64,000 bases of DNA from Aquella oligotrophica (GTDB lineage: Bacteria > Pseudomonadota > Gammaproteobacteria > Burkholderiales > UBA11063), in the NCBI RefSeq assembly GCF_002892535.1, contig NZ_CP024847.1, positions 2,666,001-2,730,000 on the forward strand, in the 5' to 3' direction. Of the stretch, positions 35,088 to 61,303 are shown piece by piece. The position numbers were made by a program, and so were the translations under genes. Each line of letters opens with the position of its first letter. The stretch's first letter is position 1. The notes beneath the pieces were generated by a model, which worked only from the letters and a program-made list of their open reading frames with translations, was not told where the DNA came from and made no database searches.

Positions 35088-35116
35088 ATTTAAGTCCTCT
35101 AAAATTATTGTACCCA

Positions 35117-38302: not shown

Positions 38303-38460
38303 TAAAAATTGATTGATCAAAAATAAGACATTGTTAACACAATATAGTTAAAGCACCATTTAATTTTGTAATGATCGAATACTGAAAAAACTTTCTCAAT
38401 AGACTCAATATGAAAGATTTGATTGAACGCTATTCTACATGAAGAGTAGAAAAATAAAAA

Positions 38461-46170: not shown

Positions 46171-47643
46171 ATGATAACTCATGATAATTTCCTTTTAAAA
46201 TTGAAAAAAATTTCTGCAGACAATAATAATATTCTGTGTCTGAATCTTGCCTTAGGCTTTTCTCTAAATAGTTTGAGTATAAATAATCGTTTGATATCCT
46301 CAGAGCAGTTAGAACTTATTATAAAAAACACCATGGGAGAAGATACTTTTTGGGATATGGGAATACCTAAGGGACAAGCTGAATTTCTTGTCTTTGGCGC
46401 GGCATACTCAACCAAGCCAGTTCATGCACTTAGCGTTAATGTATCGGTAGGCGAAATATCTAAAACTCTCATGGTTTTTGGACATCGGGAATGGACAAAT
46501 TATGGGGCCAGTATTGCAAGGCAATTTAATTTAATGCCGATTAAATATAATTATGCATTTGGTGGTAATGGTTTTGAACTAAACCCAGATGGAGTTGGTT
46601 ATAAGGCAACTATTGGAACGTTACTTCCCAACATTGAGTCATCTGAGGAGTTATTGGTTTCAATCGAAGATATAGTAACACCAGCTGGATTTGAGCCATT
46701 TCCACCAAACTGGCAACAAAGAAGTCAACACTTTATACAACATCCAAATATCGATTTTAAAATGGATTCAGTAACTATACCAGACGATATTCTTCCCGAA
46801 CACTTTAATACAGCGCCGAATGATCAGCGATTATCCGGTTTTTTTAATGGTGATGAACCAATACAGATTACCAATATGCACCCACTATATCCAAGCATAA
46901 ATTCAAAATTACCAGGGAAGCGGCTGCGTGTATTTGCTATTCAAGCAGAAGAAGATAAAGAAGTTCTTAATGAATTAAATATTCAATCTGATACTCTGTG
47001 GGTAATTCCTAACTTAGAATGTGGAATACTCCAATATCGAATAACAATAAAAATCAACAGCGACGATCTACAAGATATTAAGTTTCTTTTGATTCAACAA
47101 GAGGAAATCAATGGAGAAATAAGACCACTGGAATATTACGCTAACAATATCATAAAACGCTATAAAGAAGCCCCCTCCAATGCCGATTTATACTCCAAAA
47201 TTCAGTTTACAATGGCAGCTGAAGATTTATCACCAAAAGAACCCAATAACCGAAACAATATATGTTCTCAATATAAAATCCAATTACCTCCACCTGAATT
47301 AAAATATGTACCACAGAATAATGCTAGTTTAAATGAAGACCCTGAGCTCAGCACAATGTTTATAGAAGTTCAAAAGGAAGTTAGTAAAATAATGGAGAAA
47401 TTAAACCTTAATCATGAAAGTCTTGAATCATTTAAAAAACATCGGGAACAATCCGGACTTAATTCTTACCCATCGGGTGAAGAGGTAATTAATTACTTAA
47501 GAGAATCAGGAATTAAGTCCCCGGAGCTAGAAGTTTTAATAAATAAAGCCAATCAGCTACTAATGGAGATTGAAGAAGATATAACTGCTGAAAATGCCCC
47601 TCTGAATAATCATAAAGAACATGAAAACAATAAAACCAAATAA
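46171..47643 (+). CDS. DUF2169 protein (T6SS-associated adaptor-like), first copy
   Basis: A 490-residue cytoplasmic protein. Residues 1-320 form a DUF2169 domain: FLVFGAAYSTKPVHALSVNV near 68-87, FGHREWTNYGAS, YNYAFGGNGFELNPDGVGYK near 127-146, and a PAGFEPFPPNWQQRSQ segment near 171. DUF2169 proteins are regular partners of PAAR/VgrG effectors in T6SS loci and act as chaperones or adaptors in the cases studied. The C-terminal 120 residues are charged and helical without known domain. It is a paralogue of the next gene, overlaps it by 23 bases if the ATG at 47621 is used there, and belongs to the T6SS locus by context. Confidence 0.85.
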   Translation: MITHDNFLLKLKKISADNNNILCLNLALGFSLNSLSINNRLISSEQLELIIKNTMGEDTFWDMGIPKGQAEFLVFGAAYSTKPVHALSVNVSVGEISKTLMVFGHREWTNYGASIARQFNLMPIKYNYAFGGNGFELNPDGVGYKATIGTLLPNIESSEELLVSIEDIVTPAGFEPFPPNWQQRSQHFIQHPNIDFKMDSVTIPDDILPEHFNTAPNDQRLSGFFNGDEPIQITNMHPLYPSINSKLPGKRLRVFAIQAEEDKEVLNELNIQSDTLWVIPNLECGILQYRITIKINSDDLQDIKFLLIQQEEINGEIRPLEYYANNIIKRYKEAPSNADLYSKIQFTMAAEDLSPKEPNNRNNICSQYKIQLPPPELKYVPQNNASLNEDPELSTMFIEVQKEVSKIMEKLNLNHESLESFKKHREQSGLNSYPSGEEVINYLRESGIKSPELEVLINKANQLLMEIEEDITAENAPLNNHKEHENNKTK

Positions 47644-50191
47644 TATGTCGCTATTGTTTAGAACTCAGTTGCTAAATAAACAAGATATTCTAACTATTGG
47701 TGCTTTTGCAACCTTCTCTTTTAACATGAATGAACCACGACTTCTAGAAGAACAACAATTATGGAAAATAGTAGAGCTAAACCTAGGAAAAGATGAGATT
47801 CTTGATTTAGGACTACCCAAACCTCGTGGTGAATATTTGATATATGGAAAAGCCTATTCTAGCAAGCCTGTTCAAGCTATGGCAATACATATAACCATAG
47901 ATCAGCTATCCAAGTCATTAGTTGTAATCGGTAATCGCTACTGGACGCCCATAGGCGCAAGTAAGCCAGAATTTTTTACGGAACTAACAGTTGATTATAC
48001 AAATGCATATGGAGGGGATGGATGTGCAGAAAACCCTGTAGGAAAAGGGTATAAGGCGCCAGAGGCTGGGAAATTTTATTTACCAAATATTGAGGATCCA
48101 AATAGCCCCATTACCAGAAAAGGTGATCAACCACACCCAGCAGGTTTTAATGCCTACCCAATCAATTGGCCACAAAGAATGCAATATATGGGGCAAATTG
48201 ATAATAACTACTTACAGGAATGCTGGCCTGAATTCCCAAAAGGAACTGATCCGTTAATCTTCAATTCCGCACCGGAAGATCAGCAATTAAAAGGTTATTT
48301 TCAGGGTACAGAAAAATTTACTATAAAAAACATGCATCCGGTTAACTCTACACAAACATCAAAGCTACCAGGGGTGAGGGCAAGAATCTTCATCACCCAG
48401 AAAAACAGAAATAATGAAGAAGTATTTAAGGAGCTTCCGACAAAAGCAGAAACCCTTTGGTTATTTCCAAATCAGGAAGTAGGTACCTTACTTTTTCGTG
48501 CCAATATAAATGTGATTGATGAAGAATATAGTGATCTTTTACAACTATATGCAGTATGGGAATCAGTAGAGGAAGCCCCTCGTTCAGCTGAATTCTATTT
48601 ACAGCAGCTACTTCTAAACGACCAAATAGAAAATGAAGCTGTCGCGGAACCTCCAATAGAAGAACCACCTATAGCAAAAGAATCAGCTCCAGTAGAAGAA
48701 ACAGTAGCTGAAGAATATACTCTACCACAGAACCCAGAACTAGATAAAGCATTAAAAGACCTACAAGATATTCAGAAAAAACTCTCAGATCAACTAAAAG
48801 CACAGGGAGTTGATCCCGAACAGCAAACAGCAAAAATAATGTCAATGTCTGCCAACCCGCAAAGTAAAGAAATGAGTAGTGAGGAAGCATTGAAGGAATT
48901 GCAGCAAATCACACAAAATATAATGCAGAAAAATAATTTAACTCAGGCAGATTTGGATAAGGTAATTACGCAGTCAGCTGAGAGTAAACTCCCTCCCCTG
49001 TCAGATTTATTGAAGCAACTTGGTCCATTAGAGGGTAATGCTGCTGAGTTAGTAGAAAATTTGGTAAAACTGGATAAAATTTCACAAGATAACCAAGTAG
49101 CACAAGAACCAGAAATAGCTGAAGAAAGCCCTATAGATAATAACGGTATTGATGAAGCTACCATACCATTGCCAGTCCTAACTCCATTAACATTAACCAC
49201 TAGCGATGTAATGACCAAATACAATCGCAATAAAGATTTAAGCAGTCTGGACTTAAGTAATTTTGATCTAAGCAGTTTAGATTTAAAAGGCGCTGACTTC
49301 AGTCGGTCAATTTTAAACAATGTGAATTTTCAAAATAGTAATCTTGACAATGTAGTTTTTAATAATTCCTTTCTAGACAGTGCAGATTTTAGTAATACCT
49401 CATTAAACGATGCTACTATCAATGATTCATATCTAGGTCGTGCTAATTTTCTAAATGCTAATTTAACTAGTGTTAAGATCACTAATTCAGATTTAAATAG
49501 CAGTAATTTTAATAAAAATATTTTATTAGGTGCTCAATTTACTGATGTTAACCTAGATCAAAGTAATCTGGAAAATATAGTGGCACAACAATCAAAATTT
49601 ATTCGCTGTATAATATCAAACTGTAACCTATCTAACGCCAACTTTACGAAGGCAACTCTAACAGATTCTGATCTATCCCTTTCAATTTTGAACAACTCTA
49701 AATTTAATAATGCTAGTGCTACTGGGATTAAATTAGCTGGAGCTACTGGAGAATCAACTGACTTTAAGGATGCAAACCTTAGCTATTCGCGAGCAGATGA
49801 AACTACTTCCCTTTATAAAGCAAATTTTAAAAATACCAACCTAAATTTTGCCAGCTGGGAAGGCGCACAACTTGCAGAGTCTGATTTTAGTAATGCTATT
49901 TTTGATGAATCAAATTTTAGTAGTTCAAATTTTACCAAAGCAAAACTAGAACTAGCATCTGCCAAAAAAACAAATTTTACAAAAGCGGTGTTTGAACATG
50001 CAGACTTAAATAGAATCAACCTATTTAAGGGGTCATTACGGCGAAGCAATTTACTAGCAACTGATTTACGCTATTCAAATCTTTACGGCGTAGATTTTTA
50101 CAAAGCTAGTATGGGGCAAACTGACTTAACTGGGGCAAACCTTGAACAGACCTTACTCTCTGCAATGGGCGTTAGCCCCAAAATAATTTAA
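47621..50191 (+). CDS. DUF2169 protein with C-terminal pentapeptide-repeat domain
   Basis: An 856-residue protein. Residues about 15-335 are DUF2169 (YLIYGKAYSSKPVQAMAIHI, YTNAYGGDGCAENPVGKGYK, PAGFNAYPINWPQRMQYMG). A Glu/Gln-rich coiled linker (about 340-530) follows, then about 60 pentapeptide units (about 535-852; SLDLSNFDLSSLDLKGADFS and on, A/S-D/N-F/L-x-x pattern), which fold as a right-handed quadrilateral beta-helix. The combination is known from T6SS loci; the helix may sit on a spike tip or bind an effector, which is inference. The ATG at 47645 is an equally good start and would leave a one-base gap to the previous stop. It ends at a shared terminator with tssC. Confidence 0.87.
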   Translation: MKTIKPNNMSLLFRTQLLNKQDILTIGAFATFSFNMNEPRLLEEQQLWKIVELNLGKDEILDLGLPKPRGEYLIYGKAYSSKPVQAMAIHITIDQLSKSLVVIGNRYWTPIGASKPEFFTELTVDYTNAYGGDGCAENPVGKGYKAPEAGKFYLPNIEDPNSPITRKGDQPHPAGFNAYPINWPQRMQYMGQIDNNYLQECWPEFPKGTDPLIFNSAPEDQQLKGYFQGTEKFTIKNMHPVNSTQTSKLPGVRARIFITQKNRNNEEVFKELPTKAETLWLFPNQEVGTLLFRANINVIDEEYSDLLQLYAVWESVEEAPRSAEFYLQQLLLNDQIENEAVAEPPIEEPPIAKESAPVEETVAEEYTLPQNPELDKALKDLQDIQKKLSDQLKAQGVDPEQQTAKIMSMSANPQSKEMSSEEALKELQQITQNIMQKNNLTQADLDKVITQSAESKLPPLSDLLKQLGPLEGNAAELVENLVKLDKISQDNQVAQEPEIAEESPIDNNGIDEATIPLPVLTPLTLTTSDVMTKYNRNKDLSSLDLSNFDLSSLDLKGADFSRSILNNVNFQNSNLDNVVFNNSFLDSADFSNTSLNDATINDSYLGRANFLNANLTSVKITNSDLNSSNFNKNILLGAQFTDVNLDQSNLENIVAQQSKFIRCIISNCNLSNANFTKATLTDSDLSLSILNNSKFNNASATGIKLAGATGESTDFKDANLSYSRADETTSLYKANFKNTNLNFASWEGAQLAESDFSNAIFDESNFSSSNFTKAKLELASAKKTNFTKAVFEHADLNRINLFKGSLRRSNLLATDLRYSNLYGVDFYKASMGQTDLTGANLEQTLLSAMGVSPKII

Positions 50192-50203
50192 ATTATTAAG
50201 CAT

Positions 50204-50234
50204 AAAAAAGATGCAGTTAAACTGCATCTTTTTT
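50204..50234. terminator. Bidirectional terminator between the DUF2169 gene and tssC
   Basis: A perfect 13-pair stem, 50204-50216 with 50222-50234, five-base loop, A run before and T run after. It lies between two convergent genes. Confidence 0.93.
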
Positions 50235-50239
50235 ATTTA

Positions 50240-51727
50240 CTATTTTTTATCTAATTTACCAACTAGTGATAAAGTAAATGAAGCACCCATATATTTAAAA
50301 TGAGGCTGTACTAGCAAATTAACCTTATACCAACCAGGATCTCCCTCTACATCAGCTATAGTTATTTGTGCTTTACGTAATGGTCGACGGCTTCTCACGC
50401 CTGGAGAGACGTTTTCCTGATCAGCAACGTATTGGCGAATCCAGTTATTAAGCTCATTTTCAATATCATCACGAGTTTTCCAAGTACCAATATTCTCACG
50501 CTGAATAACTTTGATATAGTGAGCAAGCCTACTAACAATGAATGTATATGGCAATTGAGTACCAAGCTTATAATTTGCCTCAGCTTGCTTTCCTTCAGGT
50601 GTATCACCAAATATCTTCGGTTTCTGCACTGAATTTGCCGAGAAAAATGCAGCATTATCACTACCTTTACGCATGGTCAGGGCAATAAACCCTTCCTCAG
50701 CAAGCTCAAACTCACGCCGCTCCGAAATCAAAATCTCAGTAGGGATTTTAGTTTGCAATTCGCCCATTGCTTCGTACTGATAGATTGGCATATCTTCTAC
50801 CGCACCGCCGCCTTGTGGACCAATGATATTCGCACACCAGCGATATTTAGCAAAACTGTCAGTAACTCGAGTAGCAAATGCAAAAGCTGCATTACCCCAC
50901 AGAAATTTTTTATTACTATCAAGCACTGTCTCTTTATAATTAAAGCTCTTAACTGGAACAGTATCCTGACCATATGGCAAACGCAATAAAAAGTGCGGTA
51001 ATGCCAAGCCAACATTACGTGCATCTTCACTTTCACGAAACGACTGCCATTTGATATACTGAGGCATTTCAAAAATTGATTTAAGATCTTTCAAATTTGG
51101 CAGTTTTGAGAAATCCTCCAACCCAAAAAACTCAGGCCCCGCAGCAGCAATAAATGGTGCATGAGACATGGTTGCAACACTAGCAATTGACTGTAGAAGC
51201 TTAATATCTTGACTTCCAGGGATAAATTCATAGTTGCCCAAAATTAAACCATATGGACGACCACCAAATTGACCATATTCGCTGGTATAAATGGTTTTAT
51301 ACAAACCAGACTTGTTAATTTCTGGAGCATCTTCAAAATCGTCAAGCAAATCCTGTTTGGATACATTAACTAACTCAATCCGTACATTTTCGCGAAAATC
51401 AGTTTTATCAACTAGATATTTTAATGATCGCCATGCTGATTCAAGTTTTTGAAAATGTTCATGATGGAGAATCTCATCCATCTGCATACTAATTTTCTGA
51501 TCAAGATGGGCAATCATTTCATCTACCAAACCTTGGGTCACTTTAGTTGCTGCATTTTCAGGTTTAAGTAACTCATCGAGAAACGCCTGTAACCCTTGCT
51601 TGGTCGCGGCATAACCTTCATCAACTGGCTTTAGTCTGGTCGCTAAAACTATTTCATCAATTAACGACTGAGACTCAGCATTCTGGGCTGCTGCACCGCC
51701 TTCAACTTGCTTTTCTGCATCACTCAT
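50240..51727 (-). CDS. tssC: T6SS contractile sheath large subunit TssC (VipB)
   Basis: A 495-residue TssC/VipB/ImpC protein. It forms the contractile sheath with TssB in the cytoplasm around the Hcp tube. Landmarks: WRSLKYLVDKTDFRENVRIE (near 92), YGQFGGRPYGLILGNYEF (near 150), APFIAAAGPEFFG, LRLPYGQDTVPVKSFNYKE (near 247) and the C-terminal handle VEGDPGWYKVNLLVQPHFKY. Length is usual. It lies 14 bases after tssB on the same strand, the standard pair order. The N-terminal 20 residues are low complexity. Confidence 0.97.
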   Translation of the reverse strand: MSDAEKQVEGGAAAQNAESQSLIDEIVLATRLKPVDEGYAATKQGLQAFLDELLKPENAATKVTQGLVDEMIAHLDQKISMQMDEILHHEHFQKLESAWRSLKYLVDKTDFRENVRIELVNVSKQDLLDDFEDAPEINKSGLYKTIYTSEYGQFGGRPYGLILGNYEFIPGSQDIKLLQSIASVATMSHAPFIAAAGPEFFGLEDFSKLPNLKDLKSIFEMPQYIKWQSFRESEDARNVGLALPHFLLRLPYGQDTVPVKSFNYKETVLDSNKKFLWGNAAFAFATRVTDSFAKYRWCANIIGPQGGGAVEDMPIYQYEAMGELQTKIPTEILISERREFELAEEGFIALTMRKGSDNAAFFSANSVQKPKIFGDTPEGKQAEANYKLGTQLPYTFIVSRLAHYIKVIQRENIGTWKTRDDIENELNNWIRQYVADQENVSPGVRSRRPLRKAQITIADVEGDPGWYKVNLLVQPHFKYMGASFTLSLVGKLDKK

Positions 51728-51741
51728 TCACTACTCCTTAG

Positions 51742-52227
51742 TCATGCTTCAATATTTAATTCTTTTAATAAGCGCTCACGAGCACCATCATCTTTAATAA
51801 TATCCTGAATTTTTTTACGGAATTCTGGAACATTTCCAAGTGGACCCTTCAATGCTTTTAATGCCTCACGCAATTCTTTCATTTGGGCTAATTCAGGAAC
51901 TTGTTGCATAATTGAATCTGGGTTAAAATCTTTCATCTGTTCAAATCGCAAATTAACAGCTAGTTCTGCATCTGGTTCCGAAGACAGTTTATTGGCTACA
52001 CTTAAAGTTGCCTTAACATTAGATGCTTTTAATACTTCATCAAAATTATCTTTATCAATATTAACTGGCTTACGGTTTTCCAACGGACGATTATCAACAT
52101 CACCAGTAAAATCACCAAGCACCAATAACTTCAATGATAATTCAATGTCTTCCTTAGCATCGCCCGTATGTGGACGATATACAATATTCACCCGTTCTTT
52201 GGGTGCAATTGAGGATTCTTTAGCCAT
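51742..52227 (-). CDS. tssB: T6SS contractile sheath small subunit TssB (VipA)
   Basis: A 161-residue TssB/VipA protein that pairs with TssC to build the sheath. KERVNIVYRPHTGDAKEDIE near 11-30, LKLLVLGDFTG near 32, FEQMKDFNPDSIMQQVPEL near 103 and a C-terminal helix are typical. A TTGACA box lies on the minus strand at 52281-52286, but the best -10 (TATATT) is 20 bases away, so a promoter of its own is uncertain. The gene is 106 bases downstream of the octad-repeat protein gene. Confidence 0.97.
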   Translation of the reverse strand: MAKESSIAPKERVNIVYRPHTGDAKEDIELSLKLLVLGDFTGDVDNRPLENRKPVNIDKDNFDEVLKASNVKATLSVANKLSSEPDAELAVNLRFEQMKDFNPDSIMQQVPELAQMKELREALKALKGPLGNVPEFRKKIQDIIKDDGARERLLKELNIEA

Positions 52228-52333
52228 TATTTAGTTCCTTTAAAATTAGCATCTAATATACTTTAATTGTTAGCAATATATGTCAAGTATTTTAACATTT
52301 ACCATAAATCAATTGTAAAAACTTTGATTCCCT

Positions 52334-53698
52334 CTACGTAAATATTAAATCCTCTACATCTTTCCTCAAAGTATTAATAGTTGTATTTAGTGTCGCATTT
52401 TCTGTTTGTAACGCTTGGATGTCCAATTGTAACTGATTTATTTGTGCAGTATACTGTGTTGCTGCTTGAGTTGCAGTTTGTTGTGCCAGTTGTATTGCGG
52501 AATTTAATCCAGGAATTGCACTTGCCATAACAGTTAAAACCCCACCAATAGATATCTGATTACTGCTTATCTGAACCCCACCAAGAGTAATACCATTCGC
52601 ATTAAAAGTTGCATTATTAACACCCGTCCCAACTACAACAGAGTTAGGTGTTACAGTTACAGCCCCGGTTTGCCCACCTCCAGTGGCACTCAAGGCGGCT
52701 TGATTATTCTGTAGATTTAAAGCGGAATTTGTAGCCGCATTTCCAACCTGCAACAAGGTATTTTGAGCTGGACGCATAATTTTAGTTGCAGTATTATCCA
52801 TCGTAATTACACCATTGGAAACCCCAGTACTATTATTAAATAGTGAAACAGTCCCCCCATTTGTACTATTATTTAATGCAATCGTAGGAGTAACTCCATT
52901 ATTTTTAGTTTTTATTAAGATCCTTTTCTGCCCAAGATAGATATTGCTGAAATTACTGTTTGCTACCGTAGAACTGGTATTTAGTTCTATTACTGGAAAA
53001 GTATTTGCTGGACTTGTAATCCCAATATCTGCCGTATAGCTATTACTATTTGTAGCAGTAGCTTTAAAGCCATTACTATCTAAAGTTAATTTAGCAACTG
53101 GGGCCACCTGAATCTGGTTAAAGAGATATTTAGTTGTTAGCATTTGAACTACCATAGTAAAAACTGCAGTTATTCCTATCTCAAGACCGCTCCAGCTTGA
53201 TGAATATCCTGTAGCATAACCATTTGCTCCTGTTGATGAGCTAACAGTAAATGGTGGATTCATCAAACCATAGATTGACCCACCAATTGTAGCAGCTAAG
53301 GAAGCTGCAGTTGCTAATAAAGCAATACCGATCTCTTTTTTACGGGAAATTCTTGCCACATTACCTGCATTACCAGCCAGAGTCCCACCTTGAATAAGAT
53401 ATGTCCCCGTCGCAGAATTTGTTGTATTCTCCGCAGTTTCTGTCTTGTCGTCTGCATAAATTTTCTTGGCCTTGCTTGCGCTAAAGGAAATTGTTGTTGA
53501 TGCATTAAAGCTAACAGTCGTCCCTAGGTTAAATGAAGTGGTAGGTCCTATTGCCAAACTCGCTGTAGCACCTGCTGTTACTTTAGTTGTAGTTCCAGCT
53601 GCCATTGAAATAGTATCTCCAATAGCTAATGTTGCATTACTATTTGAAGAGCTAACAGTTAATCCAGGACCTTTATTTGAAAGTAGATAACCAGCCAT
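52334..53698 (-). CDS. Unknown T6SS-locus protein: gp5-like octad needle, two hydrophobic helices, coiled coil
   Basis: A 454-residue protein that I cannot assign to a family. Residues 21-75 are built of octapeptide units with Gly at 27, 35, 43, 51 and 59, then Ser at 67 and 75 in the same register (GDTISMAA, GTTTKVTA, GATASLAI, GPTTSFNL, GTTVSFNA, STTISFSA). This is the period of the gp5/VgrG triple-stranded beta-helix. Two hydrophobic segments follow (about 122-145 and 171-193), then Asn/Thr/Ser-rich strands (200-395) like phage tail-fibre or beta-helix shafts, and a C-terminal coiled coil (about 400-452). A very strong AAGGAGG site precedes the ATG. It lies 28 bases downstream of vgrG, so it is probably co-expressed and loaded with it. 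A spike extension or a membrane-acting effector is inference. Confidence 0.75.
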   Translation of the reverse strand: MAGYLLSNKGPGLTVSSSNSNATLAIGDTISMAAGTTTKVTAGATASLAIGPTTSFNLGTTVSFNASTTISFSASKAKKIYADDKTETAENTTNSATGTYLIQGGTLAGNAGNVARISRKKEIGIALLATAASLAATIGGSIYGLMNPPFTVSSSTGANGYATGYSSSWSGLEIGITAVFTMVVQMLTTKYLFNQIQVAPVAKLTLDSNGFKATATNSNSYTADIGITSPANTFPVIELNTSSTVANSNFSNIYLGQKRILIKTKNNGVTPTIALNNSTNGGTVSLFNNSTGVSNGVITMDNTATKIMRPAQNTLLQVGNAATNSALNLQNNQAALSATGGGQTGAVTVTPNSVVVGTGVNNATFNANGITLGGVQISSNQISIGGVLTVMASAIPGLNSAIQLAQQTATQAATQYTAQINQLQLDIQALQTENATLNTTINTLRKDVEDLIFT

Positions 53699-53725
53699 AA
53701 TAATATCCTCCTTAAAGTTTAGTAA

Positions 53726-55327
53726 TTACTTGTAATAATGCCATGAGTCATTAGCACATAGCCCTACAGCACAGTTACCTTGTGTGTCATCCATTACAAA
53801 AACATTACCAGATTTACTAATAATGGCTCCTCCCAAATAGGCATTTTGATCAACAACAAAATTACTATTTATTGAATTAAATACTGCACTCATAATTACT
53901 GGTAAATCAGGGTCGCCATTTCGGAATGATAAAGCTACCTCTGTTCCTTTATGTAATGGAAAATTAAGTCCATAACCATTACCGGCATATGGGGTTGCCA
54001 TTCTAATCCAGATTGAACCTTTACCATCAGCTTTAGCGGTCTTAAGAAATGGAAGCCTAACTTTATAGCGCCCAGTACTATCAAGCTGTGGGTATTGGCT
54101 ATCTTGTTCACCATCAACTAGTGCATTCATGATACCATAAATTTTCGGCAAAGGAGTAATCCGTTTTGGACGAAACTGAATTTTGGCTGGTAATAATACT
54201 AGTGTGTTCTCATAAAAACGCAAATTATCTTTCTGATTTTGCATTCCAGCCAATTGCTGCTGTCCTTTATGAATTACTTCCACTACTAAATATTCACCAT
54301 TGTATTCATCATATTTTGTATCATCCAGCTTTATTTTCATTCCCGCATGAATCGGAACCGCAGTACTTTTCGCATAACAAAATTGGCTATGTGAATATAG
54401 TTCCTGTGCGCGAATTGTAGCTAAAAATTGACCATCCCCCTGATTCTCTTGGCTAATAAAATTTTCGCCATAGATAACCTCTTCGCCAAAAAGACTTTTA
54501 TCCTCAGTGCCATCAGCACTAACAAAAGCAGAACAAGAAATTACCCCTTGATCACCAAGATTAGCTTTTTCATAACCATAATTAAGAATAGTTACTTGTT
54601 TGGGAACACTAACCATCTTTTTTTCGAAAGCATGAATTGAATTCGGATCCGGAGCAGAAGTTTGCTCACTTAAAAAACGAAACCGCAATGACTCCTGCCG
54701 TGAAATAAAATCTTCTTTCCGGTCAGTGATAACTACTTGCTCACCACTTTCCGTTTGTTTAAAGTAATAATAAACGCCATCTCGCTCCATCAGCCGATTA
54801 ATAAAGTTATAATCACTTTCTTCGTACTGACAGATAAAAGCATAGCGATTATAGCAATCTGAACTTGGTTGATATTTTTTATCAGATGAATTAAAAGAAA
54901 GCTTACGCTCTTCCTGTGAGAAGCCCTGCTCGTTAAAAACATTATTTAGTATATCCCCCAAACCATTGCCTATATATACATCTGATTTTTTTGAATACCT
55001 TAATTTGGCTAGTTTTGGGGCTAGAATAACCCGATAATAGTAGTAATCTTTAATCTTGACTAGGCTACTAAATCCTATTATTATTCCATTATATACTGAT
55101 TGTTGATTAGTAACCGAAAAATCATGCATATTCTCCATTTGGATGGTTAAACTTGCTTTTCTTCCTAATGGATTAGTGTTTTTTAGTAACTCACTTGAAC
55201 GAAGATTGATAACAAACTCATAATGCTGTGATAAAGCTTCCTTACCATCAAGTTCTACCACATCAAAATCTATTTTGTTTTTATCTGTTTCTTCCCATTT
55301 TATTTTAAAATGAAATACATTGGCCAT
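53726..55327 (-). CDS. tssI: T6SS spike protein VgrG (TssI), short form
   Basis: A 533-residue VgrG. The gp27-like base spans about 1-370 (RSSELLKNTNPLGRKASLTI; YAFICQYEESDYNFINRLME; GVYYYFKQ), the gp5 OB fold about 385-480 (DSTGRYKVRLPF, then GSIWIRMATPYAGNGYGLNF and GTEVALSFRNGDPDLPVIM). After NSINSNFV it ends within one or two turns of the place where the beta-helix needle normally starts (SKSGNVFVMDDTQG). VgrGs are usually 600 residues or more. The start is the ATG at 55327 with AGGAG six bases upstream, not the ATG at 55333, which abuts the site. The next gene encodes octad repeats. Confidence 0.94.
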   Translation of the reverse strand: MANVFHFKIKWEETDKNKIDFDVVELDGKEALSQHYEFVINLRSSELLKNTNPLGRKASLTIQMENMHDFSVTNQQSVYNGIIIGFSSLVKIKDYYYYRVILAPKLAKLRYSKKSDVYIGNGLGDILNNVFNEQGFSQEERKLSFNSSDKKYQPSSDCYNRYAFICQYEESDYNFINRLMERDGVYYYFKQTESGEQVVITDRKEDFISRQESLRFRFLSEQTSAPDPNSIHAFEKKMVSVPKQVTILNYGYEKANLGDQGVISCSAFVSADGTEDKSLFGEEVIYGENFISQENQGDGQFLATIRAQELYSHSQFCYAKSTAVPIHAGMKIKLDDTKYDEYNGEYLVVEVIHKGQQQLAGMQNQKDNLRFYENTLVLLPAKIQFRPKRITPLPKIYGIMNALVDGEQDSQYPQLDSTGRYKVRLPFLKTAKADGKGSIWIRMATPYAGNGYGLNFPLHKGTEVALSFRNGDPDLPVIMSAVFNSINSNFVVDQNAYLGGAIISKSGNVFVMDDTQGNCAVGLCANDSWHYYK

Positions 55328-55514
55328 TGTCATCTCCTAAACCAATAAACCATACTATAAGAATCTGCCAAATTATCTACATACTTTATATATCTATGTT
55401 TTTATTTATTATTTTAGATATAAATGCAATACCCTCACTTACCCTCATTCAGTTGTCTAGTCATACATATTTTTGTAATAGAGTTAATACTTTATTACAA
55501 ATTGACTAGCCAAG

Positions 55515-58226
55515 TCAATCCTGTTTTGCTTTTTTTGCCTTAGCTTTAGTTTTTTCTTTTACTTCACTCTCGATATTTTTTATTTCTTCATCAAATTTAA
55601 AAATAAATTCACCAGACTCCATAATATCTATAAACACCTTCTCTGGCATTTTTCCACTACCAGCATGAGTAATTATTGTTTTTGAAAGTTTGGGTAAAAC
55701 ATTACCATTTAATATGAAATCAATATTCCTCGCACCACTTTCCACTTCTACGCAACGACTAACGATGGCTTCTACCACAGCCTTGGAATAAGTAAGCACC
55801 ATTTTATTATTTGCAAATAAGGTATTTTGAATATTCTTTAACTTTTGCTCAACAATCCCATACATAGCATCACTGCCAAGACTAAAGAAAGGAACAACTG
55901 TCATTCTAGCCAGCAATGCAGGTTTAAAATATGCACTCAAGATCGGATTTATCGCACTAATAATATTGGCAACCGGAATTTCACTAGCCCCATCACCACT
56001 AGTCATCTCCTGAATAACATCTGATGCCAGATTACTAGTTAAGATAATAATGGTATTTTTAAAATTGATTTCTTTGCCTTCACCATCATTAACGATACCT
56101 TTATCAAATACCTGATAAAATACGTTTAATACATCCAAATGAGCCTTTTCTGCTTCATCAAGTAATACCACAGAATATGGACGTTGTCTAACTGCTTCTG
56201 TTAGCATCCCACCCTCACCATAACCGACATATCCAGGAGGGGAGCCAAGTAATCTACTAGCTGTATGACTCTCCTGAAATTCGCTCATGTTTATAGTAAC
56301 AATATTCTTGCGATTACCAAAAATCAAATCAGCTAAAGCTTGACTACATTCAGTTTTACCCGTACCACTTGGACCAACAAATAAAAATACACTTATTGGC
56401 TGCTGAGTATTCTTCAGCCCAGACTTGGCAGCACGAATAGAATCAGCAACTAAATGAAGCGCATGATTTTGACCCCGGATAGATTCAGCAAGCCTACTCT
56501 CCAAGTCAATAAGAATACCACTCTCATCACGCTGCATTTTACCCAAAGGCACACCAGTCCAATCTGAAACAACCTCAGCTACGACATCCTGATCAACATC
56601 AATCCTTAATAAAGCATCCGGATTTTGATTACGTTTTAGTTCAGATTCGGCTTCATTTAGTTTTTCACCTAACTCCCTAGCTCTATCTGCATTTTCTTTA
56701 TTGGCAAATAACTCTTTCCGTAAATCAAGTACTTCTTCTACTAACTTCTTCTCTTTCATCCAGCGCTCATAAAGCTCGTGTGCTTCGGCTTCAAGTAGAC
56801 TTTTCTCAATTGCTAGTTTGGTATATTTTTCTTCATCAATGGTAATCCGATTTAAACGATCTCGTTCCAGAGCATTCAAAGTACGGTTTATAGCAAGAAT
56901 CTCCCGTTCTTTATTATCAAGGATGCCCGGCTTAGCAGAAAGATTTATCTTTATTCTCGAGCAACTAGTATCAAGAAGATCAATCGCTTTATCCGGTAAA
57001 AACCGATCGGTTATATAGCGGTCAGATAGAATAACTGCAGCTTCCACTGCTGCATCGCGAATTGTTACCTGATGTTCTTTTTCATAATGCTCTTTTATTC
57101 CCCGTAAAATTAGCGTAGCATCAGAAAGCGAAGGTTCATCAAGCTTCACTAGCTGAAACCTTCTTACCAACGCAGGATCTTTCTCAAAATACTTCTTGTA
57201 TTCTTTCCAAGTGGTTGCGGCAATAGTTCTCAACTCCCCACGCGCCAAAGATGGCTTTAATAAATTAGCAGCATCATTCCCACCAGCAGCGCCACCTGCC
57301 CCGATAAGCATATGAGCTTCATCAATAAATAAAATAGTTTTTTGCGCGCTAGACTTTATTTCATTAATCACACCACGCAAACGTTTTTCAAATTCGCCCT
57401 TTACGCCAGCTCCAGCTTCCAAAGCCCCCATATCTAAACCAAGAATCCGCATGTCTTTTAATAAATCAGGAACATCATTATTTATTACTCGTAATGCTAA
57501 CCCTTCGACAATAGAGGTTTTACCAACCCCAGGTTCTCCAACACATATAGGGTTATTTTTCCGTCTGCGCCCCAAAATCTCAACTATCAAACGCAATTCT
57601 TCATCCCGCCCAAAGACCGGGTCAATTTTGCCATCTTTAGCAAGTTCGGTAAAGTCAGTACAAAACTGTTTAACAAAGCCAGTTGTACCATTTACTTGCT
57701 GAACCCCATCCATTGGATTTGATGAGCTCCCAGCATCATCTACTGTCGAATGCTCTTTTGAGGCTCGAGTATAATCAGCAAATGACTTCAGTAAAGCATC
57801 GCGATCTATTTCTTTTAACAAATCAGCGTAATAACCAGATGAATACAACACAAGCTTAGTTAAGTAAGCAATTAAAATAGCTCCACTACGAATTTTGCGC
57901 TCAGAAAGGTCAATGGAGGTAATTAGCCAAGAGTCCTGAATTAAATCTAACAGTTGTGGCGAAAAAACGGGCTTGGAAGAATTACCAGACTTATACTCTT
58001 CAAGTGCCTGTAAAAGCAACTTTTGGACTTTTACATGCTCTAGACCACTTTCTTTTAATATTACCGAGCAATCACTGTCCATATCTTCAAGTAGTTTATA
58101 TAAGAAATGCTCAATTGTAATCTCATAATGAGTTCGTGAAACACACATTCCGATCGCATTTTGCAGTGCCATACTACTGCAATCATTTAACTTCATCAAC
58201 AAGGCTTTGATATCGCTAGCGATCAT
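55515..58226 (-). CDS. clpV: T6SS sheath-recycling ATPase ClpV (TssH)
   Basis: A 903-residue AAA+ disaggregase that unfolds contracted TssBC sheaths. An N-terminal Clp repeat domain (about 1-150) precedes AAA1 with Walker A GEPGVGKTS (near 228) and IDEAHMLIGAGGAAGGNDAAN, a middle coiled-coil domain (about 415-525), and AAA2 with GPSGTGKTE (near 620) and VVLLDEAEKAH. The Gly-Ala-rich loop after Walker B is typical of ClpV rather than ClpB. A Lys-rich tail ends the protein. It is divergent from hcp and leads the arm clpV-vgrG-unknown-tssB-tssC. GGAGC precedes the ATG. Confidence 0.96.
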   Translation of the reverse strand: MIASDIKALLMKLNDCSSMALQNAIGMCVSRTHYEITIEHFLYKLLEDMDSDCSVILKESGLEHVKVQKLLLQALEEYKSGNSSKPVFSPQLLDLIQDSWLITSIDLSERKIRSGAILIAYLTKLVLYSSGYYADLLKEIDRDALLKSFADYTRASKEHSTVDDAGSSSNPMDGVQQVNGTTGFVKQFCTDFTELAKDGKIDPVFGRDEELRLIVEILGRRRKNNPICVGEPGVGKTSIVEGLALRVINNDVPDLLKDMRILGLDMGALEAGAGVKGEFEKRLRGVINEIKSSAQKTILFIDEAHMLIGAGGAAGGNDAANLLKPSLARGELRTIAATTWKEYKKYFEKDPALVRRFQLVKLDEPSLSDATLILRGIKEHYEKEHQVTIRDAAVEAAVILSDRYITDRFLPDKAIDLLDTSCSRIKINLSAKPGILDNKEREILAINRTLNALERDRLNRITIDEEKYTKLAIEKSLLEAEAHELYERWMKEKKLVEEVLDLRKELFANKENADRARELGEKLNEAESELKRNQNPDALLRIDVDQDVVAEVVSDWTGVPLGKMQRDESGILIDLESRLAESIRGQNHALHLVADSIRAAKSGLKNTQQPISVFLFVGPSGTGKTECSQALADLIFGNRKNIVTINMSEFQESHTASRLLGSPPGYVGYGEGGMLTEAVRQRPYSVVLLDEAEKAHLDVLNVFYQVFDKGIVNDGEGKEINFKNTIIILTSNLASDVIQEMTSGDGASEIPVANIISAINPILSAYFKPALLARMTVVPFFSLGSDAMYGIVEQKLKNIQNTLFANNKMVLTYSKAVVEAIVSRCVEVESGARNIDFILNGNVLPKLSKTIITHAGSGKMPEKVFIDIMESGEFIFKFDEEIKNIESEVKEKTKAKAKKAKQD

Positions 58227-58463
58227 ATATATGCTCCTAAATAATAGCGAGTGTTATAGTTGAATGTTTAGCCAATTATATCATAAGTAGTTTGACAGTC
58301 AACCCAGATTTAAACACTGGTTTTCAAAGAAAATATATGAAACCTTTATGGCAGCAATCTTATTAATACCATATATTAATTTCTTGTCCAAATTGGCTAA
58401 CTAAAAAGCTTGCAATACAATTTTCTTTATGATATTATTTTGCCATACCAAAATAATAAGTAT

Positions 58464-58485
58464 ATTTTACTTAACAAAGTAAAAT
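58464..58485. promoter_or_regulatory. Perfect 22-bp palindrome in the clpV-hcp intergenic region
   Basis: ATTTTACTT-N4-AAGTAAAAT has two nine-base arms without mismatch. A possible hcp promoter, TTTACT (58466-58471) and TATAAC (58488-58493) with 16-base spacing, overlaps it, so a bound regulator would control it. Which regulator is unknown; none is encoded nearby. Confidence 0.55.
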
Positions 58486-58503
58486 GTTATAACAGGTATA
58501 AAA

Positions 58504-58537
58504 GTTAGTTCAGATAGCTCAATAACTAACTATCTGA
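58504..58537 (+). promoter_or_regulatory. Overlapping alternative hairpins in the hcp leader
   Basis: GTTAGTT (58504-58510) can pair with AACTAAC (58524-58530), or TCAGATAG (58510-58517) with CTATCTGA (58530-58537). The two stems interlock and exclude each other. The second is followed by GCTTTT and would look like a weak terminator. This lies 44-77 bases before the hcp start. The rest of the 354-bp gap between clpV and hcp holds only the palindrome listed above. Confidence 0.45.
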
Positions 58538-58580
58538 GCTTTTCAATACTAAAAAATTCTTAATAAACTAGGAGATGAAA

Positions 58581-59069
58581 ATGGCTATTACAATATACGC
58601 AACTATTCAAGGTTCAAGTCAGGGAGCTATCCAGGGCGATGTTAAACAGCAAGGTCGTGAAAATACCATTTTAGGTTACGCACTTGATCATGATGTTGAA
58701 ATCCCTCGTGACACGCATACTGGTTTGGCTGTTGGTCAACGGATTCATAATCCTGTAGTACTAACCACTGAAATTGGAAAGCATACGCCGAAAATTTTCC
58801 AAGCATGTTCTACTGGTGAACCATTAGATGTAACCCTTGATTTTTATCGTATTAATGATAAAGGTCTTGAAGAAAAATATTACACTGTTAAGTTAACAAA
58901 GGCAATCGTAGTAAACTCTCGTGAATGGTTTCCAGAGACTTTTATTGCTGATAATAAACCGTACAAACATATGCAGACAATTTCAATGTCGTATGAGAAA
59001 ATTTCATGGATAGACAATATAAATAGTACGGAAGCAGAAGATGCATGGAATGCACCTAAATTAGCATAA
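58581..59069 (+). CDS. hcp: T6SS tube protein Hcp (TssD)
   Basis: A 162-residue Hcp. Hexamers stack into the inner tube that carries the VgrG spike and effectors. ITIYATIQGSSQGAIQGDVK at the start, the HDVEIPRDTHTGLAVGQRIH stretch (near 35-54) and PETFIADNKPYKHMQTISMS later are typical of the Hcp1 type. I use the ATG at 58581, six bases after AGGAG; the ATG at 58575 directly abuts it. The same AGGAGATGnnAATGGC arrangement opens vgrG. A hairpin terminator follows, which would make hcp more abundant than tssEFG. Confidence 0.96.
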   Translation: MAITIYATIQGSSQGAIQGDVKQQGRENTILGYALDHDVEIPRDTHTGLAVGQRIHNPVVLTTEIGKHTPKIFQACSTGEPLDVTLDFYRINDKGLEEKYYTVKLTKAIVVNSREWFPETFIADNKPYKHMQTISMSYEKISWIDNINSTEAEDAWNAPKLA

Positions 59070-59092
59070 TCCAAGTATTTGTGGTTTATAAT

Positions 59093-59118
59093 ATGGCATT
59101 GGTTTTAATCAATGCCAT
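59093..59118 (+). terminator. Terminator between hcp and tssE
   Basis: Stem ATGGCATTG (59093-59101) with CAATGCCAT (59110-59118), followed by TTTTTATTT. It lies 24 bases after hcp and would reduce read-through into tssEFG. Confidence 0.8.
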
Positions 59119-59138
59119 TTTTATTTGAAGTACTATAA

Positions 59139-59558
59139 ATGACAACTCGCACTTTATTTGAAACTTTCCGTTATATTGAGAAAACTCTTGATAAACAGGA
59201 TAATAATAGCTCTGCATATATTGACTCGATTTTGGAACATCTGCGAAATATTTTAAATACCAGACGAGGAAGTGTATTAATTGCAGATAATTATGGCATG
59301 CCAGATTTAACTAACTTTCCGGGGGAAAACCTTGCTGAAGCTGTTCAGGAACTAGAAAAGATGATGCGAATCACTATCGAGCGTTATGAACCCAGATTAC
59401 GCAATATTAAAATTAGTTATAACCCTGACACAAGTGATGCTCTCACACTAAAGTTTGGCTTATCAGCAGAACTAATTGTTGATAATGGTGGGCGCCAGCA
59501 CCCAATTTTTTTTGAAACAGTAATAACGTCTGATGGCATGGTGAAAGTTGAAAGGTAA
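59139..59558 (+). CDS. tssE: T6SS baseplate protein TssE (gp25-like)
   Basis: A 139-residue gp25-like baseplate component that starts sheath assembly. RTLFETFRYIEKT opening, IDSILEHLRNILNTRRGS (near 25-42) with the EX-R type region of gp25 proteins, DNYGMPDLTNF, and IERYEPRLRNI (near 82-92) are typical. It leads tssE-tssF-tssG; the gap to tssF is eight bases. Confidence 0.95.
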   Translation: MTTRTLFETFRYIEKTLDKQDNNSSAYIDSILEHLRNILNTRRGSVLIADNYGMPDLTNFPGENLAEAVQELEKMMRITIERYEPRLRNIKISYNPDTSDALTLKFGLSAELIVDNGGRQHPIFFETVITSDGMVKVER

Positions 59559-59566
59559 AAAAGCTT

Positions 59567-61303
59567 ATGTTTAATAAATACTATGAGAATGAGCTACATA
59601 AGCTACGAGAAGCAGCTACTGAATTTGCAAGAGAACATCCAGTAACAGCACCACTATTAATGGGACCAAGTATGGATCCCGGAGCTGAACGGATGCTTGA
59701 AGGCGTTGCCTTTTTAAGTGGTCTATTAAATCAAAAACTAGATAATGAATTTCAGAAATTCATTAAAGAAACCATCGAGTTAATTTACCCACAATTCGTA
59801 AGACCTATTCCGGCAACATCAATTGTATTATTTGAGCCCAAAGCAGGGCAAACTGAACCAGTAACTGTAAAAGCTAAAACAACACTTGCAGCGAACAAAG
59901 TTGATGGCACATCATGTCAGTTCCAAACTTCTTTTGATCTTGAAGTTCACCCACTAAAAATCATCTCTGCAAAACTGGAGCGGGTAACAGAAGAGGTCTC
60001 CCATCTAGATGTATATTTTGAATTACAAGGTACTACATTGGAAAGCTGGAATATTCAACAGGGATTATATCTTTTTCTTGGTGGAACTTATACCCGGGCA
60101 GCAAATATTTATATGCTTCTGTATAATAACTTAAAAAAGATTATTATAAAATCTGAAGATGGGAGACAGTTTATCCTAAAACCAGAGCAGCTAGAAGCAA
60201 TTGGGATGGATATAGATAATCAGCTTCTTGATTATCCAGTACAATCATTCTCCGCCTTTCGCTTATTACAGGAATATTTTATTTTACCTTACAAATTCTT
60301 CTTTATGAAGCTTACCGGGTTTGATAAATGGCTGGATCGAGGAAAATCAGATAAATTTTCAATTACTTTTGAATTGCATGACATTCCAGAAAATGACCTA
60401 CAGGTAAATAAGGATACTTTCATTTTAAATGCAGTTCCGGTAATAAATCTGTTTTCGTACGAAATGGATCCAATTACTCTCAATCACCAAATAGAAAAAA
60501 CTTTATTGCGTCCAAACCCCCACTATCCAACTCATTATCAGGTATATGAAGTCCAAAGTGTAGTTGCATATACCGAAGGGGTTAATGATAAAAAAGAATA
60601 CCTTCCAATTAACAGTTTTGTTGGACATAAAAGCTCTAACAGCCCTGTATATCAGCTACTTCGAGAACGCTCAATAATAAACAACCATCCAGAAGTATAT
60701 TTATTTTTCCCATATCAGGAAGACGCTACCAAAATAAATGAAGAGACTCTTGTGGTTACTGTAAAATCCACTAATGGCAGGCTACCCGAAAAATTAAGAA
60801 TAGGCGATATTTGCGTTCCAACTTTTAATTCCCCTGAAAGCCTTAATTTTCGGAATATTTTACAACCGACATATTCGATAGAACCACCAACCGACTCAAT
60901 GAATTTCTGGCGGTTTATTTCATACTTATCACTGAATTTTCTGTCATTAACACAATTAGATAATCTTAAAGCCATGTTAAAACTATTTCTATCGAGTGAA
61001 GATCAGGATAAACCCAGACTTACAGCCAATCAGAAGAGAATTACAGGAATAAGTAGTATCAAGGCAGCTCCAATTGACAGGGTACATAAAGGACGTATAG
61101 TTCGGGGACACAAGATAGAAATGGAAGTATATGCAGATCAGTTTGCAGGACTTGGCGATGTATATTTATTTGGAAGTGTATTAAATAGTTTCTTCACGAT
61201 CTATGCAAGTATTAATACTTTTATCCAATTTAATCTTAAAGAACTTAACTCGGGAGTAAGTTTTAAATGGCCAGTGAAAATAGGCAATCGAACATTAATA
61301 TAA
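59567..61303 (+). CDS. tssF: T6SS baseplate protein TssF
   Basis: A 578-residue TssF, part of the TssEFGK wedge of the baseplate. The opening YYENELHKLREAATEFAREH, MDPGAERMLEGVAFLSGLLN (near 37-56), LDNEFQKFIKETIELIYPQF and RPIPATSIVLFEP are all characteristic. A C-terminal segment with HKGRIVRGHKIEMEVYADQF and GDVYLFGSVLNSFFTIYASI also matches. Length is normal. The 3' end overlaps tssG by 37 bases, the usual coupling. Confidence 0.97.
   Translation: MFNKYYENELHKLREAATEFAREHPVTAPLLMGPSMDPGAERMLEGVAFLSGLLNQKLDNEFQKFIKETIELIYPQFVRPIPATSIVLFEPKAGQTEPVTVKAKTTLAANKVDGTSCQFQTSFDLEVHPLKIISAKLERVTEEVSHLDVYFELQGTTLESWNIQQGLYLFLGGTYTRAANIYMLLYNNLKKIIIKSEDGRQFILKPEQLEAIGMDIDNQLLDYPVQSFSAFRLLQEYFILPYKFFFMKLTGFDKWLDRGKSDKFSITFELHDIPENDLQVNKDTFILNAVPVINLFSYEMDPITLNHQIEKTLLRPNPHYPTHYQVYEVQSVVAYTEGVNDKKEYLPINSFVGHKSSNSPVYQLLRERSIINNHPEVYLFFPYQEDATKINEETLVVTVKSTNGRLPEKLRIGDICVPTFNSPESLNFRNILQPTYSIEPPTDSMNFWRFISYLSLNFLSLTQLDNLKAMLKLFLSSEDQDKPRLTANQKRITGISSIKAAPIDRVHKGRIVRGHKIEMEVYADQFAGLGDVYLFGSVLNSFFTIYASINTFIQFNLKELNSGVSFKWPVKIGNRTLI

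What the first reader, a model, noticed from the sequence alone, without database searches (positions are those of the whole stretch)
52334..53698. Unknown gene next to vgrG encodes octapeptide needle repeats, two hydrophobic helices and a coiled coil
Seen: residues 21-75 run in strict period eight with Gly at 27, 35, 43, 51, 59 and Ser at 67, 75. The gp5 tail spike of phage T4 and the VgrG needle are built of just such octads in a trimeric beta-helix. After it come two likely membrane-spanning segments, long Ser/Thr/Asn-rich strands and a C-terminal coiled coil. Inference: a separate spike-shaft or spike-tip protein that pairs with VgrG and may insert into a target membrane. I know no described T6SS part with this order of domains.
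Basis: partly seen in the sequence, partly recalled or inferred. Interest (0 to 1): 0.78.

Follow-up and report, generated by a model that had tools for sequence, protein, structure and literature searches.

The report
Two-part injection needle with membrane hairpin
In a tap-water bacterium the needle of its molecular injection machine seems to be made as a separate protein, instead of as the tail of the hub protein VgrG, and that piece carries two greasy helices that may enter the target's membrane.

Summary
The 454-aa gene lies 27 nt after a 535-aa VgrG that ends about 50 residues beyond its OB domain, in the genome of Aquella oligotrophica. Gly stands at residues 27-59 in period eight. An octad matrix trained on VgrG tails, without this gene, scores it 23.2 (0 of 2000 shuffles as high); the VgrG scores like noise. 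The octads are therefore in the neighbour, not in VgrG.

The closest VgrG relatives found (Syntrophus and other mostly uncultured lineages) carry the same tail fused: octads, an AG motif, two hydrophobic helices about 40 residues apart, a beta-rich end. I read the gene as the detached needle half of such a VgrG. A Gammaproteobacteria MAG has the same split, in another frame. The genome carries the markers of a class III Tvp T6SS.

Membrane action is inferred only. The helices are unremarkable in this sequence alone and persuade only through conservation. Serratia VgrG1 and Burkholderia VgrG5 are precedents from the literature, not tested here. New variant of a known kind.

The parts
52334..53698 (-). 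the gene: detached needle protein, 454 aa
   Evidence: open frame; octad matrix 23.2, 0/2000 shuffles; fused-VgrG-tail HMM 14.0 bits, 0/2000 shuffles
53474..53638 (-). octad array, residues 21-75 (Gly 27, 35, 43, 51, 59; Ser 67, 75)
53381..53401 (-). residues 100-106, conserved strand ending in the AG/GG motif before the first hydrophobic helix
   Evidence: G105 invariant in the 11 rows of A5; strand 100-104 in the model
53261..53377 (-). first hydrophobic helix, residues 108-146 (peak 123-141)
53117..53200 (-). second hydrophobic helix, residues 167-194 (peak 171-189)
52547..53095 (-). Ser/Thr/Asn-rich beta region, residues 202-384, read as resumed prism
   Evidence: strands to residue 318 in the model (low confidence); colinear with fused tails over residues 25-384
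52340..52507 (-). C-terminal coiled coil, residues 398-453
   Evidence: heptads 15/5000; pLDDT 84-94 over 411-454
53699..53725 (-). 27-nt gap after VgrG with a strong Shine-Dalgarno 8 nt before the ATG; same reading frame as VgrG
53726..55333 (-). VgrG, 535 aa, gp27-like and OB domains, no octad array; the only PF05954 match in the genome
55515..58226 (-). TssH (ClpV)
   Evidence: TIGR03345
51742..52227 (-). TssB
   Evidence: assigned by eye, no family scan
50240..51727 (-). TssC
   Evidence: assigned by eye; used as query
46171..47643 (+). DUF2169 protein (TvpA-like)
   Evidence: PF09937
47621..50191 (+). DUF2169-pentapeptide protein (TvpAB-like)
   Evidence: PF09937, PF00805
58575..59069 (+). 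TssD (Hcp)
   Evidence: TIGR03344
59139..59558 (+). TssE
   Evidence: assigned by eye, no family scan
59567..61303 (+). TssF
   Evidence: TIGR03359
61267..62271 (+). TssG
   Evidence: TIGR03347

Best explanation
The gene encodes the needle half of the T6SS spike as its own polypeptide. Step 1 (shown by sequence): the VgrG of this locus supplies hub and OB domain only; the next gene supplies the octads and, in the same order, the later elements that related VgrGs carry fused. Step 2 (inferred): three copies trimerise, helped by the C-terminal coiled coil, into a beta-prism that stacks on the three VgrG ends, much as cleaved T4 gp5C stays on gp5*. Step 3 (inferred): the prism is interrupted by a hydrophobic helical hairpin in each chain, six helices per trimer, held shielded before firing by the Tvp accessory complex (DUF2169, pentapeptide, DUF3540), which also loads the DUF4150 PAAR tip. 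Step 4 (inferred, roughly even odds): on firing the hairpins enter the target membrane and anchor the spike or make it leak, so the needle is structural part and membrane-active effector in one. No gene stands between it and TssB, so there is no immunity gene directly behind it (none was sought elsewhere), which fits a eukaryotic (grazer) target or a mainly structural role.
For: VgrG ends about 50 aa after OB and scores -24.7 for octads (462/2000 shuffles as high), the neighbour 23.2 (0/2000). HMM of 11 fused tails: gene 14.0 bits, colinear over residues 25-384; 0/2000 whole and 0/2000 segment-wise shuffles as high, best 4.4 and -0.3; G318 homologue E 1.4e-8. Two split versions besides this one: G318 (stands alone after DUF2169-pentapeptide; similar start) and L082 (other frame, 56-nt gap). 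AF2 runs on the gene and on the L051 tail, with partly shared alignments, give the same order of elements: no fold for octads, strand, two long helices, paired strands. Class III Tvp markers are in this genome. Coiled-coil score: gene 10, L082 4, 0 of 11 fused hairpin VgrGs above 0, as expected if a free needle needs its own trimerisation. Precedents: Serratia VgrG1 pathway depolarises target inner membrane (PMC13373197); VgrG5 C-terminal domain needed for cell fusion (PMC7082077).
Against: The hydrophobic pair of this gene alone is not beyond chance (178/500 shuffles at 1.3; absent at 1.5), nor is that of G318 (106/500 at 1.5). The fused-tail profile does not single out hairpin tails: in its list the gene ranks 72nd (E 0.002, large composition correction), below many VgrG frames, some of them without a hairpin; the first control, a reversed sequence, comes at E 0.054. 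hhalign of gene+G318 against fused tails is weak (probability 48%, E 1.9e-4, octads to AG motif only). AF2 means are 43.6 and 37.8, so no fold is established. G318 has no VgrG in its assembly. Other fused VgrGs also end in coils (G164 12; L095, L067, L054 9), so coil and split are not strictly linked. VgrG and gene share a reading frame, which leaves a recent break possible.
Confidence: 0.75

Rival explanations
1. The two hydrophobic helices never meet a membrane: in the trimer they pack on each other as a six-helix collar that locks the prism, and the protein is purely structural.
For: The helices are Ala/Gly/Thr-rich and only modestly hydrophobic here (1.66, 1.42); model helix 108-146 is longer than a membrane needs; no immunity gene directly behind it.
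Against: In several fused relatives the peaks reach 2.0-2.6; the Serratia VgrG1 pathway of a class III system is membrane-active (PMC13373197).
Confidence: 0.35
2. A VgrG recently broken in this strain: the gene is the orphaned tail of a fused VgrG and the machine is dead or depends on rare readthrough.
For: VgrG and the gene lie in the same reading frame with a 27-nt gap; the fused form is the common one.
Against: A strong Shine-Dalgarno at proper distance; G318 has the gene alone, starting at a similar place, away from any VgrG; L082 is split in another frame; both frames are otherwise open.
Confidence: 0.1
3. A cargo effector of its own, whose N-terminal octads only dock it on the spike and whose toxic part is the rest.
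For: Separate gene; many T6SS effectors carry transmembrane domains (PMC7773334, start of abstract in the search listing).
Against: Without it the only VgrG found in the genome has no needle; the later part is colinear with VgrG tails, several of which end like a prism tip (by eye).
Confidence: 0.15
4. A TvpC-like VgrG mimic that fills the baseplate in the pre-complex and is then replaced.
For: Likely beta-prism protein in a Tvp class III system.
Against: No DUF3540 or DUF6484 hit for the gene up to E 1 and a separate DUF3540 gene exists in this genome (PF12059); VgrG would then lack a needle.
Confidence: 0.05

Closest known systems
C-terminal half of fused VgrGs, most in Tvp loci (L050-L053, L057, L072, L073, L079-L081, L088)
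   Same: Octads in register, AG motif, two hydrophobic helices 33-55 residues apart, beta-rich end
   Different: Fused to hub and OB domain in one chain; none of 11 scored hairpin VgrGs has a C-terminal coil; in the three scanned (L051, L072, L088) no Pfam model reaches its cut-off in the tail, one sub-cut-off T6SS_Vgr match at 509-539 of L072 apart
Split VgrG loci: L082 (Gammaproteobacteria MAG); 'split vgrG locus' in Acinetobacter (PMC6838775, one passage read)
   Same: Separate hub and needle genes; the L082 needle gene also has octads, two hydrophobic helices and a C-terminal coil
   Different: The Acinetobacter cases are described in one or two sentences of that passage without hairpin or coil, and were not examined here
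Phage T4 gp5 / gp5C (PMC3004832, passages)
   Same: Octad needle that is a separate chain in the mature spike, as (gp27-gp5*-gp5C)3
   Different: Split by proteolysis, not by gene; VXGXXXXX motif with Val two before Gly, absent here; no hydrophobic hairpin or coil in the passages read
Serratia marcescens VgrG1 (class III Tvp; PMC13373197: abstract passage, sections 5 and 12, part 1 of 13)
   Same: Same accessory set; very long beta-prism; its pathway harms the target inner membrane
   Different: One chain; hydrophobicity in the last 26 residues, not an internal hairpin; adjacent immunity gene Vai1
Burkholderia VgrG5 (PMC7082077, PMC5626464, PMC7641602, PMC13391677, passages only)
   Same: VgrG whose C-terminal domain, called hydrophobic in one review table, acts in membrane fusion
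   Different: One chain; sequence not fetched or compared here; host-cell fusion is a virulence trait of pathogens, not implied for Aquella

Membership tests
VgrG (TssI) | gp27-like hub domain and OB domain | tested here: not met
   No PF05954/PF04717 hit in the gene; both in the neighbour. So it is a piece of a spike, not a VgrG
VgrG needle (C-terminal beta-prism) | octad array as in VgrG tails | tested here: met
   Score 23.2, 0/2000 shuffles
VgrG needle (C-terminal beta-prism) | trimeric beta-prism stacked on the OB domain | not testable with these tools
   Only monomer prediction offered; octads unfolded in it
Hairpin VgrG tails (group defined here) | octads, AG motif, two hydrophobic helices, beta-rich end in this order | tested here: met
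   Colinear HMM match over 25-384; A5; but the hydrophobicity of this member alone is weak and the HMM also scores VgrGs without hairpin
T4 gp5C | VXGXXXXX repeat | tested here: not met
   0 of 5 Gly octads have Val two before Gly (sequence)
Class III Tvp T6SS (the machine) | DUF2169 with pentapeptide extension, separate pentapeptide protein, DUF3540, DUF4150 | tested here: met
   PF09937+PF00805, PF13599, PF12059, PF13665; spread over two loci of one chromosome. That PF13665 stands for DUF4150 is recalled
Class III Tvp T6SS (the machine) | TvpC pre-complex exchanged for VgrG | not testable with these tools
   needs binding experiments
TvpC (DUF3540/DUF6484) | profile match | tested here: not met
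   No match of the gene up to E 1
prePAAR/Eag transmembrane effectors | PAAR domain in the protein, Eag (DUF1795) chaperone | tested here: not met
   No PAAR hit; no PF08786 match in the genome at E 0.1 (that PF08786 is the former DUF1795 is recalled)
VgrG5-type fusogenic C-terminal domain | sequence relation and fusion activity | not tested

The most novel reading that the evidence does not exclude
Hairpin VgrG tails are an undescribed, widespread kind of spike-borne membrane effector, in which three helical hairpins fold out of the needle itself, so that the weapon is the needle. In some lineages the needle has become an interchangeable second polypeptide with its own trimerising coil (Aquella, the L082 MAG), and in an uncultured Shewanella possibly three different needle chains that make a hetero-needle. 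This would be a common cause behind the unexplained membrane effects of Serratia VgrG1 and Burkholderia VgrG5.
Probability: 0.3. Interest if true: 0.8.

Novelty: new variant of a known kind. Interest (0 to 1): 0.6.

Why it matters
If right, the T6SS spike can be built from two polypeptides, hub and needle, as in phages, and the needle can carry membrane-entering parts within its shaft. It offers a small system in a tap-water bacterium in which needle assembly and spike-borne membrane damage can be tested apart from the hub. It also gives a sequence signature (octads, AG motif, helix pair) for a group of VgrG tails; in the three scanned, no Pfam model reaches its cut-off in the tail.

Tried and rejected
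Homology by the gene alone: nothing confirmed among 94 candidate stretches of genome contigs, no match in plasmids or phages, none confirmed among 21 stretches of viral contigs with A4, 14 PDB sequences all at E 0.23 or worse, nothing in PADLOC. Pfam and NCBIfam gave sub-cut-off hits, all to the coil but one (PF09610 at the first helix); PHROGs gave phrog_27494, a virion structural protein, at E 0.0093 over residues 236-315 and five hits at the coil end. I take these as chance or composition. Order search: 3 of 399 genomes (self, G318, G370); G370 rejected, a 58-residue match with a stop inside and no T6SS gene recognised by eye around it. Class search with A4: 3 of 369 (self and two at E 6.1e-4 and 9.5e-4); L130 looked at and rejected, L131 not looked at.

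Absence of a PAAR tip (PF05488, one sub-threshold match) was my first idea and is wrong: the DUF4150 form is there, at the same place. AF2 models were too poor for a fold search, so none was run. The idea that split and coil always go together fails. Of the VgrG5 papers, PMC3993413 is not held and PMC3993412 was not asked for.

In one search, 74 had a VgrG frame and 60 a DUF2169 match; 12 of 74 loci had a hydrophobic pair at 1.5, 18 of 74 at 1.3. Six loci had no VgrG frame in that script and were dropped (nine). The profile used 11 tails chosen for octads and hydrophobic stretches, so their shared hairpin is by selection; the gene, G318 and L082 were not chosen for it. The octad matrix used 10 tails (of those 11, L052 and L079 left out; L086 added), and the coil score a third set of 11 (L086 for L052). 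One search also listed VgrG frames of L012-L040; some of these are wrong frames, and only that of L012 was used later. In some searches the frames ranked above the gene were taken as VgrGs by position and were not each checked.

Full report
Where it is. The window lies in a single-contig genome of 2,820,660 bases, the length printed in the abstract for Aquella oligotrophica P08T from laboratory tap water (PMC6612550; abstract start, passages; the terms 'type VI', 'T6SS' and 'secretion system' do not occur in its held text). The gene at 52334-53698 (-) follows VgrG by 27 nt and precedes TssB. Around it are ClpV, VgrG, TssB, TssC on one strand and two DUF2169 genes, Hcp, TssE, TssF, TssG on the other (TssB, TssC and TssE by eye). 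A second locus of the same chromosome, at about 0.23 Mb, holds a pentapeptide protein, DUF3540, DUF4150, a TssJ-like gene, TssK, and TssL-, TssM- and TssA-like genes (the 'like' genes by eye). This is the gene set of a class III Tvp T6SS (PMC13373197, section 12). The genome has one match to the VgrG hub family and none to PF08786, the Eag chaperone family.

The observation. The octads are real and in the stated register. A matrix of one octad, trained on 10 VgrG tails from other organisms, gives the consensus [ILFV]-[TV]-[LAI]-G-[ST]-[KES]-[VIF]-[ES]. The gene scores 23.2 against a best shuffle of 6.9 (0 of 2000); its G318 homologue 39.1 and the L082 split gene 13.8 (0 of 2000 each); the VgrG of this locus -24.7, which 462 of 2000 shuffles reach. 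So the octads are missing from VgrG and present next door. The repeat is of the VgrG-tail kind, not the strict T4 VXGXXXXX kind.

What it descends from. A search with VgrG, not with the gene, solved it. Two VgrGs of the order (G164, G272) at 36% identity continue past the OB domain into octads and, by eye, a terminal coil (coil scored for G164 only). In genome contigs the four best hits of the listing (L050-L053: Syntrophus and deltaproteobacterial MAGs) have tails of 357-397 residues with octads followed by two hydrophobic helices (L052 is cut by its contig end). Eleven such tails made a profile. It finds the G318 homologue at E 1.4e-8 and the gene at 14.0 bits (E about 0.002), colinear over residues 25-384, the hairpin included. 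Of 2000 shuffles the best reaches 4.4, of 2000 segment-wise shuffles that keep each region's composition the best reaches -0.3, and the reversed gene -8.7. The profile is not specific for hairpins: the gene is 72nd in the list, under many VgrG frames, some without a hairpin, while the first control (a reversed sequence) stands at E 0.054. Profile-profile comparison is weaker (48%, E 1.9e-4, octads and AG motif). In the joint alignment of 11 rows G35 and G105 are invariant.

The helix pair. All 16 proteins examined show a pair of peaks of at least 1.3, 33-55 residues apart, but 13 of these were picked for having hydrophobic stretches. The gene's own pair is not unusual for its composition (178 of 500 shuffles at 1.3, 87 at 1.4; absent at 1.5); the G318 pair is reached at 1.5 by 106 of 500, the L082 pair by 20 of 500. 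For 11 VgrG tails tested at 1.5, shuffles reach it in 3-57 of 500, so single cases are not all beyond chance, and L080 lacks the pair at that level. In the unpicked set, 12 of 74 loci have it at 1.5, 18 at 1.3. AF2 runs on the gene and on the L051 tail, poor overall and with partly shared alignments, give the same series: unfolded octads, a strand, two long helices, strand pairs.

Split or broken. VgrG and gene share a frame, so a recent break had to be considered. Against it: a strong Shine-Dalgarno at the right distance; a homologue in G318 that starts at a similar residue and stands alone behind DUF2169-pentapeptide; and L082, a Gammaproteobacteria MAG, where a 531-aa VgrG is followed after 56 nt, in another frame, by a 499-aa gene with octads, the helix pair and a coil, then DUF2169, two pentapeptide genes (by eye) and DUF3540. 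The G318 contig ends inside the gene and its assembly (90% complete) shows no VgrG, so the pairing cannot be checked there. Of 11 hairpin VgrGs scored none has the coil; both hairpin split genes that are complete have one, although L082 scores only 4 and other fused VgrGs have coils too. I read the coil as the trimerisation aid of a free needle; this is inference.

How rare it is. Stand-alone needle genes turned up in G318 (order search, 3 of 399 genomes with a match, one of them rejected) and L082, and perhaps L115. The class search with A4 added none that I accept (3 of 369: self, one rejected, one not looked at). The first-look filters of these searches may miss such low-complexity proteins.

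How it may work. Shown: composition and order of parts, relation to VgrG tails, T6SS context. Inferred: trimer stacked on VgrG; hairpins shielded by Tvp proteins; entry into the target membrane on firing. Functional precedents, from papers: the Serratia VgrG1 pathway depolarises the target inner membrane, VgrG1 is the likely effector and no toxin domain could be isolated (PMC13373197, sections 5 and 13 part 1); the VgrG5 C-terminal domain is needed for host-cell fusion (PMC7082077, PMC5626464, PMC7641602, passages), and a review's table lists 'C-terminal hydrophobic domains' for it (PMC13391677). T4 gp5 shows that a needle may be a separate chain in the mature spike (PMC3004832, passages).

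What is in print. One passage reports split vgrG loci in Acinetobacter (PMC6838775). Searches for split, truncated or heterotrimeric VgrG and for hairpins or transmembrane parts in VgrG (listings of 20 of 21, 20 of 91, 20 of 37, 9 of 9 and 3 of 4 papers) listed no paper whose title or abstract start describes a separate needle gene with a helix pair. The library lacks most subscription papers, and most listed papers were not opened.

Verdict. A separate needle protein of a class III Tvp T6SS: likely (about 0.85). Membrane-active in the target: about even. New variant of a known kind.

Noticed in passing
L115:7521-10782 (uncultured Shewanella, NZ_CANLZC010000090.1): A tailless VgrG (508 aa) is followed by three tandem genes (213, 302, 227 aa), each with an octad-like stretch and, by eye, a long coil; possibly a needle of three different chains. 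Octad score of the first is only marginal (34/2000 shuffles), its coil score 8; no Pfam hit for any.
   Followed up: partly
L087, L061, L067, L054, L110, L113, L118: Two or three VgrG frames in tandem, from about 0 to about 430 nt apart (L087: 747, 784, 781 aa), several beside DUF2169-like genes by eye; L110 pairs a tailless VgrG (521 aa) with a hairpin-tailed one (1109 aa). Hetero-trimeric spikes?
   Followed up: no
L048:15176-15946 and L041:3304-4083: A 256-259 aa gene between DUF4150 and a TssJ-like gene in both Aquella and G164, alike by eye; the Aquella copy has no Pfam hit. A candidate accessory protein of this T6SS type.
   Followed up: no
window 46171-62271 and own genome about 227.9-238.7 kb: The T6SS of Aquella is split over two chromosomal loci; of 23 genus genomes searched, this one included, one has a match to the VgrG and two to TssC.
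   Followed up: partly
window 32382-38320: Two adjacent very large proteins (911 and 1067 aa) with lipoprotein-like starts; the second has beta-propeller-like repeats by eye.
   Followed up: no
window 3407-4900: Cys-rich protein with many repeats of about 20 residues and a lipoprotein-like start, by eye.
   Followed up: no
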